Below are positions 60,006 to 64,000 of a DNA stretch of 64,000 nt, one piece after another. The notes beneath the pieces were generated by a model, which did no database searches, was not told the DNA's origin, and saw only the letters and a list, made by a program, of their open reading frames with translations. This DNA comes from Archangium lipolyticum (GTDB lineage Bacteria > Myxococcota > Myxococcia > Myxococcales > Myxococcaceae): the NCBI RefSeq assembly GCF_024623785.1, contig NZ_JANKBZ010000024.1, forward strand, positions 1 through 64,000, in the 5' to 3' direction. Both the position numbers and the translations under genes were made by a program. Each line of letters starts with the position of its first letter. Positions within the stretch are counted from its first letter, which is position 1.

Positions 60006-60047
60006 TACGAAGACCTTCGTTGACATCTACGAATCCCTTCGTATACC
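60006..60047 (+). promoter_or_regulatory. Promoter of the BlaI-M56 operon overlapped by two operators
   Basis: TTGACA (60020-60025) and TATACC (60042-60047) with a 16-bp spacer make a good sigma70-type promoter. Two inverted repeats cover it: TACGAAG-AC-CTTCGTT (60006-60021) and TACGAA-TCCC-TTCGTA (60028-60043), centres 22 bp apart, about two turns. The pattern is that of tandem BlaI/MecI dimer sites. The ATG is at 60080. Confidence 0.8.
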
Positions 60048-60079: not shown

Positions 60080-60475
60080 ATGAGCGAGACGAAGCTGCCG
60101 CGGCCGACGGACGCGGAGCTGGGCATCCTGCAGGTGCTGTGGGAGCGAGGCCCGAGCACGGTGCGCGAGGTGCACGAGGCCCTCAACAAGGGCGCGGAGG
60201 GCACCGGCTACACCACGGTGCTCAAGCTGATGCAGATCATGACGGACAAGGGGCTCGTGGAGCGCGACGAGTCCCAGCGGGCCCACGTGTACCGGACGCG
60301 GGTGACGCAGCAGAAGACGCAACGGCAACTGGTGACGGACCTGCTGGACCGTGCCTTTGGAGGCTCACCGGCCCAGCTGGCGATGCAGGCGCTGTCGACG
60401 AAGAAGGCCTCGGCGCAAGAGCTGGCCGAGCTGCGCAAGCTGCTGGACACCCTCGAGGGGGAGGAGGAGTCATGA
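60080..60475 (+). CDS. BlaI/MecI/CopY-family repressor
   Basis: A 131-residue winged-helix repressor. LPRPTDAELGILQVLWERGPSTVREVHEAL is the family's N-terminal helix-turn-helix entry. GYTTVLKLMQIMTDKGLVERDE is the wing block containing the Thr/Val-Leu recognition stretch, and the following helical part provides dimerisation and the proteolysis site. In BlaI systems the partner M56 protease triggers cleavage of the repressor. Its stop overlaps the start of the M56 gene (ATGA), showing coupling. It should repress its own operon through the dyads just upstream. Confidence 0.93.
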   Translation: MSETKLPRPTDAELGILQVLWERGPSTVREVHEALNKGAEGTGYTTVLKLMQIMTDKGLVERDESQRAHVYRTRVTQQKTQRQLVTDLLDRAFGGSPAQLAMQALSTKKASAQELAELRKLLDTLEGEEES

Positions 60476-62466
60476 GCGGAGCCGTGTCGCAGTCCCTGGG
60501 TTGGGCGTTGCTGCACCTGCTGTGGCAGGGCGCGCTGGTGGCGGCGGCGCTGGCGGTGGCGCTGCGCGTGCTCGACCGGCGCGCGGCCTCCCTGCGCTAC
60601 CTGCTGGCGTGTGGCGCGCTGGCGCTGATGCTCGTGCTGCCCGTCCTCACCGGCTGGCACCATTACACCTCGAGCCAGGAGGCGGAGCCGCTCCCGATGG
60701 CTCCCGCGCTGGAGCCGGTCTCCCCGGAGATGGCGGCCCCCGGACTCGGGGTGACACAGGCGGTGGTGTCCACCCCGGAAGCCGCGCGAGCCACCGAGCC
60801 GGCCCCCGTGTTGGAGCGGGTGCTGGCACCGCTGGGCGAGCACATGCACTGGCTGGTGCTGGCGTGGAGCCTGGGCGTGGCGGTGTCGTCGCTGCGGCTC
60901 CTGTCCGGATGGCTGAAGCTGCGCCGGCTGGTGCGGGAGGCGGAGCCCGCGCCCGCCGAGTGGCAGCGGACGCTGGAGCGGCTGGCGGAGCGGCTGGGGA
61001 TGACGCGCCCGGTACGGCTGCTGCGCTCGGCGGCGCTGGACGTGCCCGCGGCGGTGGGCTGGCTGCGGCCGGTGGTGCTGCTGCCCATGTCGGCGCTTAC
61101 CGGACTGTCGGCGCGCCAGCTGGAGATGGTGCTGGCGCATGAGCTGGCCCACATCCGCCGCTACGACTACGCGGTGAACCTGGTGCAGACGCTGGTGGAG
61201 ACGCTCTTCTTCTACCACCCGGCGGTGGGCTGGATGTCGCGCGTCATCCGCGTCGAGCGCGAGCACTGCTGCGACGACATCGCCGTGGGCACCAGCGGCA
61301 ACGCGGTCTCGTACGCCCGGGCCCTCACCGCGCTGGAGTCCCTGCGGGTGACGCCGCTCGAGTCCGGGAGCCCGGCGATGTCCGCCCTGGGAGGCTCGCT
61401 CACGGAGCGTGTCCGCCGGCTGGTGGTGGCGCCCGCGGCGCGCTGCTCCTCGCGGTGGGCGGCGGGTGCCTCGGTCCTTACATTGATGAGCGGCATGGCG
61501 GTGGCTGCCCCCCTGGCGGCCCTCATGGTCCCCGAGCGTTCCACGACGGTGTCCGAGGCCCCCGCGGCCCCCGTTCCCGCGAGCGCCCCGGCAATCACCT
61601 CCATCGTGACCCCGGTCGTGGGGGGTGTGCTCGAGGCCGTCCTCGCGCAGGCTCCCGTGCCCCCACCTGCTCCCGCGCCCGTTCCCGCGCCCAGGCCGAT
61701 GCCGGCTCCGCGCCCCCGGGGCGAGGACGTGGACGTACCGGACGTGGACGAGGACACCACCCGCGTGGGCGACAAGCAGCTCTCGGTGGACCAGCTCATC
61801 GGGCTCAAGGTGGCCGGAGTCACGCCGGAGCGGGTGAAGGAGCTGGAGTCGCTCGGCTACGAGCCCACGGTGGGCAACCTGGTGCAGTTCGGCCACGCCC
61901 ACGTGACGCCCGAGTACGTGAAGGAGATGACGGGTGCGCTGGGCCGCAAGCCCTCCGCTGACGAGCTGGTGCAGATGAAGCACCTCGGGGTGTCACCGGA
62001 GCGCGTGAAGGCGCTCGAGGCGGCCGGGTACGGCAAGCTCTCGGGAGACGAGCTGACGCAGGCGGCGGCGCTCGGGGTGGACGCGCGCTTCATCAACGAG
62101 CTGAAGGCCGCCGGCTACGACAAGCTGTCCTTCGATGACCTCGTCCAGCTGCGCGCCCTGGGCGTGAATGGCCAGTACGTACAGGCGCTGAAAGACGCGG
62201 GCTACGACAAGCTCCCGGCGGACGACCTGGTGCAGTTCAAGGCGCTCGGCGTCAACGCGGAGTACCTCCGCTCGCTGCGCGAATCGGGACTGGACAAGCT
62301 GCCCGCGGACGACGTGGTGCAGTTGCGCGCCCTGGGCGTGAACGCGGACTTCATCCGCAAGCTGCGCGACGAGGGGCTGGACAAGCTCTCCGTCGAGGAG
62401 CTGGTGCGCCTGCGCGCCAGCGGCGTGGACGCGGACTTCATCCGCGAGCTGCGCAAGAAGAAGTAA
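60472..62466 (+). CDS. BlaR1/MecR1-type M56 metallopeptidase with C-terminal 29-residue repeats
   Basis: A 664-residue membrane protease. N-terminal membrane segments (LGWALLHLLWQGALVAAALAV and others) match BlaR1 sensors. VLAH223ELAH227IRRYD is the HExxH zinc motif, and RVEREHCCDDIAV supplies the Glu ligand. A further membrane segment follows near residue 330. Then comes a Pro-rich linker (about 395-425). In place of the penicillin-binding domain of BlaR1 there are about seven and a half copies of a 29-residue helical repeat with the theme 'LGVxxxFIxxLxxxGYxKLxxDDLVxL'. So the inducer is not expected to be a beta-lactam. The same repeat occurs in the next gene. Confidence 0.9.
   Translation: MSGAVSQSLGWALLHLLWQGALVAAALAVALRVLDRRAASLRYLLACGALALMLVLPVLTGWHHYTSSQEAEPLPMAPALEPVSPEMAAPGLGVTQAVVSTPEAARATEPAPVLERVLAPLGEHMHWLVLAWSLGVAVSSLRLLSGWLKLRRLVREAEPAPAEWQRTLERLAERLGMTRPVRLLRSAALDVPAAVGWLRPVVLLPMSALTGLSARQLEMVLAHELAHIRRYDYAVNLVQTLVETLFFYHPAVGWMSRVIRVEREHCCDDIAVGTSGNAVSYARALTALESLRVTPLESGSPAMSALGGSLTERVRRLVVAPAARCSSRWAAGASVLTLMSGMAVAAPLAALMVPERSTTVSEAPAAPVPASAPAITSIVTPVVGGVLEAVLAQAPVPPPAPAPVPAPRPMPAPRPRGEDVDVPDVDEDTTRVGDKQLSVDQLIGLKVAGVTPERVKELESLGYEPTVGNLVQFGHAHVTPEYVKEMTGALGRKPSADELVQMKHLGVSPERVKALEAAGYGKLSGDELTQAAALGVDARFINELKAAGYDKLSFDDLVQLRALGVNGQYVQALKDAGYDKLPADDLVQFKALGVNAEYLRSLRESGLDKLPADDVVQLRALGVNADFIRKLRDEGLDKLSVEELVRLRASGVDADFIRELRKKK
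61783..62460 (+). repeat. Tandem 87-bp coding repeats
   Basis: About 7.5 tandem units of 29 codons. Each encodes A(L/S)GV, then a (F/Y)(I/V) helix, then G(Y/L)(D/E/G)KL and (D/E)(D/E)L(V/T)(Q/R). Units 4-7 are the most alike in both protein and DNA, pointing to expansion from the C-terminal end. Confidence 0.85.
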
Positions 62467-62571
62467 CCCGCCCCTCCCCTCCCCTCACCTCCCACGGGCC
62501 CACGGCCGCGCTCCCCGCGCGCGCCGCCGGGCCCTCTCTTGCCCGAAGTGTCCCGAGAAGGAGCCCGAACC

Positions 62572-63273
62572 ATGCGAACCACCCGACTGCCGTACCTCCC
62601 CGCCGCCGCCGTCCTGCTGTGGAGCCTCTCCGCGATGGCCGCGCCGCTCGCCAGCACATGGACGGGCAAGGTGCTCGATGACCGCGTGAGCCTCAACCTC
62701 CGCTTCGAGGAGCGCGGGCAGATGGGCTTCACCGTTCCACGCTCCGCCTTGAAGGGGCTGAGCACGGCGGAGGGCGACACGAAGTTCCAGCTCGTGCGCG
62801 AGGCGGGCACCGTGAGCTTCGAGGGCCGCTTCTCCGGAGGCGAGGGCGCGGGCCACTACCGCTTCGAGCCGGACGCCGCCTGGCCCCGGGACATGGCGAA
62901 GCTCGGCTACCCGGACCTCTCCCAGGAGGAGCAGTTCCAGTTCGCCCTCTTCGACATGGGGCCCACGCGGGTGAAGGCGCTGGCGGAGCTCGGCTACACG
63001 AAGATTCCGCACGACCAGCTCCTCCAGGTGGCCATCTTCCAGGTGACGCCCGAGCACATCCGCGAGCTGGCCGCGCTAGGATTCCAGAAGCTGGACCTCG
63101 ACGACCTGGTGGCGACGCGCATCCACGGCGTCACCCCCCGGTACATCCGGGAGATAAGGGAAGCGGGCTACCCGGGTGTCACACTCGAGCAACTGGTACA
63201 GATGCGCATCCATGCAATCGACGCGAACTACATCCGTTCCTTCTCGGGGAACAAGAACGGAAGCCAGAAGTAG
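62572..63273 (+). CDS. Exported protein sharing the 29-residue repeats of the M56 peptidase
   Basis: A 233-residue protein with AGAAGGAG before the ATG and a signal peptide (LPAAAVLLWSLSAMAAP). Residues about 25-100 form a beta-rich domain (STWTGKVLDDRVSLNLRFEE). Residues about 105-225 contain four diverged copies of the repeat found in the upstream membrane peptidase (ELGYTKIPHDQLLQVAIFQVT, ALGFQKLDLDDLVATRIHGVT). It starts 105 bp after the peptidase gene in the same direction. I infer that it is the extracytoplasmic ligand or co-sensor of the peptidase. Confidence 0.8.
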   Translation: MRTTRLPYLPAAAVLLWSLSAMAAPLASTWTGKVLDDRVSLNLRFEERGQMGFTVPRSALKGLSTAEGDTKFQLVREAGTVSFEGRFSGGEGAGHYRFEPDAAWPRDMAKLGYPDLSQEEQFQFALFDMGPTRVKALAELGYTKIPHDQLLQVAIFQVTPEHIRELAALGFQKLDLDDLVATRIHGVTPRYIREIREAGYPGVTLEQLVQMRIHAIDANYIRSFSGNKNGSQK

Positions 63274-63301: not shown

Positions 63302-64000
63302 ATGCCGCGCGCGTGGGCGCTGACCGCGGGATTGCTGTGGGCGGGGGTGGCAGCGGCGGCCGTCGAAGGTCCGGGCCGGGACCAGTTCCTCCGGGCGGCG
63401 CGGGCCAGTGGCCCGGTGGCGGTGGACGGCAGGCTGGACGAGGAGACGTGGGCCAGGGCCCCGGTGTTCGACGCCTTCGTGCAGCGCTTCCCGGAGGCGG
63501 GCAAGACGCCCAGCGAGCGCACCGAGCTGCGCGTCCTCTACGACGACCGGAACGTCTACTTCGCCATCACCTGCCACGACTCGGAGCCGGCGCTCATCAA
63601 CCGCAACCTGGGGCGGCGGGACAGCGACCTGTACTCGGACCGGGTGAAGGTGCTGCTGGACACGACGCACGACCACCGCACGGCCTACGTCTTCTCGGTG
63701 AACGCGGGGGGCGTGCAGGAGGACGGGCTGCACTACGACGACCAGAACTACACCGCGGACTGGGACGGGGTGTGGGACGGGGCGGCGGGCCGCTTCGAGG
63801 GGGGCTGGGTGGCCGAGCTCGCCATTCCCCTGTCGCTGCTGCGCTTCCCCGAGTCGCCGATGCAGACGTGGGGCTTCTCGGTGCGCCGGGACATCGCGCG
63901 CCGCAACGAGGAGCTGGAGTCAGTGCTCAACCCGCGCACCAGCGGCGCCATCGTCTCGCGCCTGGGGCACCTGACGGGGATGGAGGTGAGGCCCTACCGG
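63302..64000 (+). CDS. Exported CBM9-like/DUF5916-type protein, 3' end outside the window
   Basis: The first 233 residues of a longer protein, with a signal peptide (ALTAGLLWAGVAAAAVEG). VAVDGRLDEETWARAPVFDAFVQ begins a family 9-type carbohydrate-binding fold, as in the N-terminus of DUF5916 proteins. It continues with VYFAITCHDSEP and the block around residue 175 (WVAELAIPLSLLRFPE). In that family a C-terminal outer-membrane-barrel-like domain of about 500 residues follows, which is outside the window. Binding or handling of surface carbohydrate is inferred. Confidence 0.82.
   Translation, partial: MPRAWALTAGLLWAGVAAAAVEGPGRDQFLRAARASGPVAVDGRLDEETWARAPVFDAFVQRFPEAGKTPSERTELRVLYDDRNVYFAITCHDSEPALINRNLGRRDSDLYSDRVKVLLDTTHDHRTAYVFSVNAGGVQEDGLHYDDQNYTADWDGVWDGAAGRFEGGWVAELAIPLSLLRFPESPMQTWGFSVRRDIARRNEELESVLNPRTSGAIVSRLGHLTGMEVRPYR

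What the first reader, a model, noticed from the sequence alone, without database searches (positions are those of the whole stretch)
60080..63273. BlaI-M56 sensor system with a repeat-sharing secreted partner
The BlaR1-like peptidase has no penicillin-binding domain; instead it carries 29-residue helical repeats. The next gene encodes an exported protein with the same repeats, suggesting repeat-to-repeat recognition as the inducing signal. This is unlike the beta-lactam sensor systems.
Basis: partly seen in the sequence, partly recalled or inferred. Interest (0 to 1): 0.65.

Follow-up and report, generated by a model that had tools for sequence, protein, structure and literature searches.

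The report
BlaI–M56 sensor with exported repeat partner
A soil myxobacterium carries a self-regulated gene switch that resembles a penicillin-resistance sensor but has a spring-like protein coil outside the membrane, plus an exported protein built from the same coil; the set of genes recurs across several bacterial phyla, appears to be undescribed, and its signal is unknown.

Summary
The operon is blaI (60080-60475), an M56 protease (60472-62466) whose BlaR1-like core is followed by eight ~29-residue helical hairpins instead of a penicillin-binding domain, and an exported protein (62572-63273): signal peptide, small β-domain, and the same kind of repeats. A DUF5916 outer-membrane-type gene follows (63302 onward).

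The pairing is not local chance. Among 193 Myxococcota genomes, Sec (the exported protein) and the repeat-bearing M56 occur in essentially the same ~61. The blaI-M56-Sec order recurs in Acidobacteriota, Myxococcota and Eisenbacteria, and with divergent BlaI/M56 in Alphaproteobacteria and Rhodothermia. A tandem TACGAA-N4-TTCGTA dyad overlaps the blaI promoter; in Myxococcaceae it stands, with few exceptions, only before this system's genes. Where Sec has moved elsewhere it keeps the same tandem dyad, so Sec is very probably a BlaI target. One lineage fuses M56, the β-domain and the repeats into one protein.

Best reading: a BlaR1-type proteolytic switch driving a tiny autoregulated envelope response, with Sec as its dedicated output and probable feedback partner. 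"Repeat-to-repeat recognition as the inducing signal" is untested; the wiring makes Sec an output first. No binding, cleavage or induction data exist. New variant of a known kind.

The parts
60006..60020 (+). Operator O1, TACGAAGACCTTCGT; its last base is the first base of the candidate -35 TTGACA (60020-60025)
   Evidence: Read in sequence; same position in 17 orthologous promoters; tandem pattern 0 expected in shuffled window
60028..60043 (+). Operator O2, TACGAATCCCTTCGTA, in the promoter spacer, running into the candidate -10 TATACC (60042-60047)
   Evidence: the same dyad precedes blaI in most Acidobacteriota loci examined. A generic sigma-70 scan did not report the promoter
60080..60475 (+). 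blaI, BlaI/MecI-type repressor, 131 aa (P0003)
   Evidence: PF03965 E 4e-27
60472..62466 (+). M56 sensor protease with periplasmic repeats, 664 aa (P0001); start overlaps the blaI stop
   Evidence: PF05569 E 2e-31; model; BlaR1 VIA Z 20.0
60838..61353 (+). M56 peptidase core (residues 123-294); HELAH at residues 223-227, E264 and D268
61786..62460 (+). Eight two-helix repeats (residues 439-663), predicted periplasmic after the last membrane helix (328-351)
62572..63273 (+). Sec: exported partner, 233 aa (P0002)
62647..62871 (+). Sec N-terminal six-strand beta-domain (residues 26-100), no known family
   Evidence: no Pfam/NCBIfam family over its cut-off for P0002
62878..63258 (+). Sec helical repeats (residues 103-229); several same-genus orthologues have one or two more
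63302..64000 (+). DUF5916/CBM9-like gene, start at 63302, running beyond the window to contig position about 65864; probable fourth operon gene
   Evidence: PF19313 E 5e-37, PF06452 E 3e-7; adjacent to Sec in several relatives, and with its own tandem operator in G008, G028, G116

Best explanation
A BlaR1-type regulated-proteolysis switch controlling a very small envelope regulon. BlaI dimers bind the two dyads over the promoter and silence blaI, M56, Sec and probably DUF5916. The M56 protein sits in the inner membrane with its zinc active site in the cytoplasm and its helical solenoid in the periplasm. When the solenoid is engaged, the protease cleaves BlaI and the operon is derepressed. Sec is exported and acts as the dedicated output in the same compartment. 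Because it carries the same kind of solenoid and tracks the sensor across genomes, it most likely also acts back on the sensor, directly or by taking up the same ligand, closing a homeostatic loop. Shown by sequence or model: gene order, catalytic motif, repeat homology, conserved operator, Sec's operator in trans, co-occurrence, natural fusion. Inferred: BlaI binding and cleavage (by homology with BlaR1/BlaI), periplasmic topology, feedback. Unknown: the ligand.
For: Zinc ligands invariant; BlaR1 VIA Z 20.0; S. aureus BlaR1 cleaves BlaI directly and is Nout/Cout (PMC9834060). Tandem operator in 17/17 orthologous promoters and 61/96 family genomes, usually once, control pattern 0. Lone Sec genes in G146, G142, G113, G091, G085 and G019 carry the same tandem operator. 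Co-occurrence over 193 genomes, 62 Sec hits against 63 repeat hits; G122, G084 and G153 lack Sec, repeat-M56 and operator alike. One operator per genome in 14 of 16 Acidobacteriota genomes. Natural M56-beta-domain-repeat fusions in L097. In the Sec-less G022/G081 lineage the sensor repeats are 12-15 points more diverged than the core predicts (sd 6.3) and number about six, not eight.
Against: No binding, cleavage or expression data. The accelerated repeat divergence rests on one loss event. Sec and M56 repeats differ consistently at position 12 (His 96% in Sec; mostly Gln, Leu or Val in M56), which does not favour an identical ligand site. In several genomes Sec-like proteins occur where no M56 with such repeats was detected, so the module has other uses. 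A generic promoter scan did not call the promoter.
Confidence: 0.62

Rival explanations
1. Shared-ligand model: sensor and Sec do not touch; both bind the same envelope ligand, Sec being the effector. This parallels the bla system, where the BlaR1 sensor domain is related to beta-lactamases.
For: Operon logic with Sec as nearly the sole output; homologous repeats; natural fusion puts beta-domain plus repeats in the sensor's own tail; precedent from the bla system (own knowledge).
Against: Systematic difference at repeat position 12 between Sec and M56; no ligand known.
Confidence: 0.35
2. One reading: Sec is itself the inducing signal, recognised repeat-to-repeat, making a self-reinforcing protein autoinducer switch.
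For: Co-occurrence, operon linkage, fusion, and faster sensor-repeat divergence after Sec loss suggest a functional and perhaps physical link.
Against: Sec lies under the repressed promoter, so it would have to lock itself on; two genomes keep the sensor without Sec.
Confidence: 0.15
3. Negative-feedback brake: Sec binds the sensor's repeats to hold it off, and is titrated away by the stress ligand, in the manner of CpxP with CpxA (own knowledge).
For: Same operon, same compartment, homologous repeats; homeostatic wiring.
Against: No direct evidence; the sensor persists without Sec in G022/G081.
Confidence: 0.25
4. The repeats are TAL-effector-like nucleic-acid-binding superhelices and the system detects nucleic acid in the envelope.
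For: Multi-repeat Sec profile matches solved TALE repeat chains (best E 1.6e-15), reversed control none; TALE/BurrH chains among structural matches.
Against: Single-repeat profiles give no TALE match; the M56 profile picks designed PPR instead; Z 7.8 lies within helical-repeat background; repeats are slightly acidic.
Confidence: 0.05
5. Ordinary beta-lactam-responsive bla operon with a degenerate sensor.
For: BlaI/M56 relationship; a PF00144 serine hydrolase carries the operator in G161 and G143.
Against: No penicillin-binding domain in the sensor; the PF00144 link was seen in only two genomes.
Confidence: 0.05

Closest known systems
BlaR1/BlaI and MecR1/MecI (staphylococci, Bacillus licheniformis)
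   Same: BlaI-family repressor next to an M56 gluzincin membrane protease; extracytoplasmic C-terminal domain; small autoregulated unit (PMC9834060)
   Different: Helical solenoid instead of the penicillin-binding sensor; dyad TACGAA-N4-TTCGTA; exported repeat partner as output; Gram-negative envelope
PetR/PetP (cyanobacteria, copper; PMC7896320)
   Same: BlaI/BlaR1-type pair that does not sense beta-lactams and controls few genes
   Different: Copper-dependent plastocyanin/cytochrome c6 switch; the passages read mention no exported repeat partner
CpxA/CpxP-type sensor with periplasmic accessory protein (own knowledge)
   Same: Envelope sensor with an induced periplasmic protein that may feed back
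   Different: Histidine kinase rather than proteolysis; no shared repeats
Two-helix alpha-solenoids (TALE-like, PPR, mTERF)
   Same: Repeated helical hairpins in a superhelix; weak profile and structure resemblance
   Different: 29-residue unit; no match at single-repeat level; predicted envelope location

Membership tests
BlaI/MecI repressors (PF03965) | Winged-helix Penicillinase_R domain over its cut-off | tested here: met
   95 bits against a cut-off of 22.6
BlaI/MecI repressors (PF03965) | Dyad operator over its own promoter | tested here: met
   Conserved tandem dyad; binding itself not tested
M56 peptidases (PF05569) | HEXXH plus EXXXD gluzincin motif within a membrane-helix fold | tested here: met
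BlaR1/MecR1 beta-lactam sensors | C-terminal penicillin-binding sensor domain | tested here: not met
   No such family in P0001; NCBIfam blaR1_generic 77.5 bits against a cut-off of 400; helical repeats there instead
BlaR1/MecR1 beta-lactam sensors | Cleavage of BlaI on signal | not testable with these tools
   Inferred from intact active site only
TALE-like repeat proteins | Repeats of about 33-35 residues recognisable at sequence level, DNA binding (own knowledge) | tested here: inconclusive
   Unit is 29 residues; multi-repeat profile matches, single-repeat profiles do not
Any Pfam/NCBIfam family for Sec | Match over a curated cut-off | tested here: not met
   P0002: none; 20 family members: only weak, scattered matches

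The most novel reading that the evidence does not exclude
A widely distributed class of BlaR1-type receptors whose input is protein-protein recognition: the receptor's periplasmic solenoid binds the solenoid of its own co-regulated exported partner, as brake or as inducer, with BlaI proteolysis as output.
Probability: 0.35. Interest if true: 0.75.

Novelty: new variant of a known kind. Interest (0 to 1): 0.62.

Why it matters
BlaI/M56 switches are known mainly from beta-lactam resistance. This one recurs in common soil phyla with a conserved operator, an uncharacterised repeat sensor and a dedicated exported protein that no family library names. It gives a compact, cross-phylum and testable case of what such sensors detect besides antibiotics, and of how a receptor and its exported partner share a module.

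Tried and rejected
Other genes under the operator: the only other exact site in the own genome lies inside a kinase coding region, whose encoded motif explains it. TALE homology: single-repeat profiles and the M56 profile do not support it; left as inconclusive. Fold of the Sec beta-domain: only weak matches (Foldseek none at E<=0.001; best VIA Z 5.2 to the RpfR FI domain). Defence link: only weak BlaI matches to HTH models. Rfam: nothing. An alignment spanning all Sec proteins was too diverse for a collection scan, so repeats alone were used. Literature searches found no description of this operon or these repeats; the library is open-access only and phrasing may have missed one.

Full report
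WHAT IS THERE. The window lies in a 12.6-Mb, GC-rich myxobacterial genome with four M56 genes. At 60080-63273 three same-strand genes follow one another: blaI, an M56 gene whose start overlaps the blaI stop, and an exported protein, here called Sec. P0003 is a Penicillinase_R protein and P0001 an M56 peptidase; P0001 matches no penicillin-binding family, and its best NCBIfam match, blaR1_generic, is far under the cut-off. In 58 aligned sequences H223, E224, H227, E264 and D268 are invariant, the motif described for BlaR1 (PMC9834060).

STRUCTURE. AlphaFold2 gives P0001 a BlaR1-like core (VIA Z 20.0, rmsd 4.0 over 250 residues of 8exs), a last membrane helix at 328-351, a disordered Pro/Ala-rich linker, then eight helical hairpins at pLDDT about 97. 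By the known Nout/Cout topology of BlaR1 these lie outside the cytoplasm (inference). P0002 is a signal peptide, a six-strand beta-domain and helical hairpins, mean pLDDT 92. The two arrays are homologous, but differ consistently at repeat position 12: His in 96% of the Sec units extracted, mostly Gln, Leu or Val in M56 units; the Gly at position 13 was fixed by the way units were extracted. Neither the beta-domain nor the repeats has a curated family.

CONSERVATION. In 193 Myxococcota genomes, P0002 found 62 and the P0001 repeats 63, essentially the same genomes. The two queries are homologous and can cross-match, and the genomes are mostly one family, so the counts are not independent. Closer checks: G022 and G081 have blaI-M56-repeat without a Sec gene; G122, G084 and G153 lack Sec, repeat-M56 and operator. 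In 20 loci fetched for Sec, 17 have blaI-M56-Sec in order; in other genomes checked Sec lies far from blaI-M56. A scan of one genome per species with Sec repeats gave 80 loci, including Acidobacteriota, Gemmatimonadota, Chloroflexota, Alphaproteobacteria, Rhodothermia, Krumholzibacteriota and Eisenbacteria. Over all 100 loci, some of which are the same place twice, 67 show all three genes and 5 more M56 plus Sec, mostly where the contig ends. These loci were chosen by Sec repeats, so they show linkage of M56 to Sec, not the frequency of Sec beside M56. The Acidobacteriota and Myxococcota cores group apart from the alphaproteobacterial and Rhodothermia ones, whose blaI promoters show other dyads where a dyad was found. 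L097 (Thermoanaerobaculum) fuses M56, beta-domain and repeats, twice in tandem, with no separate Sec gene at that locus.

OPERATOR. Upstream of blaI, TACGAA-N4-TTCGT and TACGAA-N4-TTCGTA stand 22 bp apart over a TTGACA/TATA-type promoter in the 17 promoters compared, with small deviations in the two most distant. The tandem pattern occurs in 61 of 96 family genomes, usually once, and the control pattern never. In six genomes with an unlinked Sec, the lone gene carries the same tandem dyad. That is the strongest evidence that Sec belongs to the regulon rather than being a passenger. In 16 Acidobacteriota genomes the single dyad occurs once in 14 and twice in two. Other genes with the tandem dyad: DUF5916 (G008, G028, G116), a PF00144 serine hydrolase (G161, G143), and a short exported-type reading frame running into a DEAD-box helicase frame (G008, G028); an S41-type peptidase in G022 has two dyads 17 bp apart. 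DUF5916 is also next to Sec in 11 loci, the window's own included.

MECHANISM. From the anatomy: BlaI represses the operon; the protease, when its periplasmic solenoid is engaged, cleaves BlaI; Sec is the main product. Cleavage is inferred from BlaR1. Whether Sec brakes the sensor, competes for its ligand or induces it cannot be settled here. An operon whose nearly only non-regulatory product is Sec looks like a response, so Sec as effector or feedback partner is more likely than Sec as primary signal. The fusion, and the faster divergence of sensor repeats in the lineage without Sec (12-15 points below expectation, sd 6.3, about six repeats instead of eight), suggest that the two arrays constrain each other, but this is one event. 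Against a universal partnership: several genomes have Sec-like proteins and no detected M56 with such repeats, and Chloroflexota carry the repeats in proteins without an evident signal peptide.

TALE LEAD. A profile of the Sec family matched solved TAL-effector repeat chains and a reversed control matched nothing. Single-repeat profiles did not match them, the M56 profile preferred a designed PPR protein, structural Z was within helical background, and the repeats are slightly acidic. I treat it as resemblance among two-helix solenoids, unresolved.

VERDICT. Observation confirmed; interpretation partly supported. The core belongs to the BlaI and M56 families but the sensor is not a BlaR1 beta-lactam sensor. 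New variant of a known kind.

Noticed in passing
L227 (G182:C599): A blaI-M56 pair under the same tandem operator whose M56 tail is an SLT transglycosylase plus M23 peptidase domain instead of repeats; suggests that the sensor tail is swapped and may point to cell-wall signals.
   Followed up: partly
L083, L098, L113, L119 (Caldilineaceae): The same repeats occur in proteins without an evident signal peptide that begin with a SHOCT-like motif.
   Followed up: no
L002 (G000:C15:109681-110574): Another M56 protein of the same genome has a tail of LGxKQ-type, probably coiled-coil, repeats.
   Followed up: no
L178 and L229 (G008, G028): A tandem operator precedes a short exported-type reading frame that runs into a DEAD-box helicase frame.
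   Followed up: no
window 63302-64000 and on to about 65864: DUF5916/CBM9-like protein of unknown function shares the regulon; no paper in the library mentions DUF5916.
   Followed up: partly
L228 (G119:C222): A blaI-M56 pair under a near-identical tandem operator with a short, different tail and no repeats.
   Followed up: no
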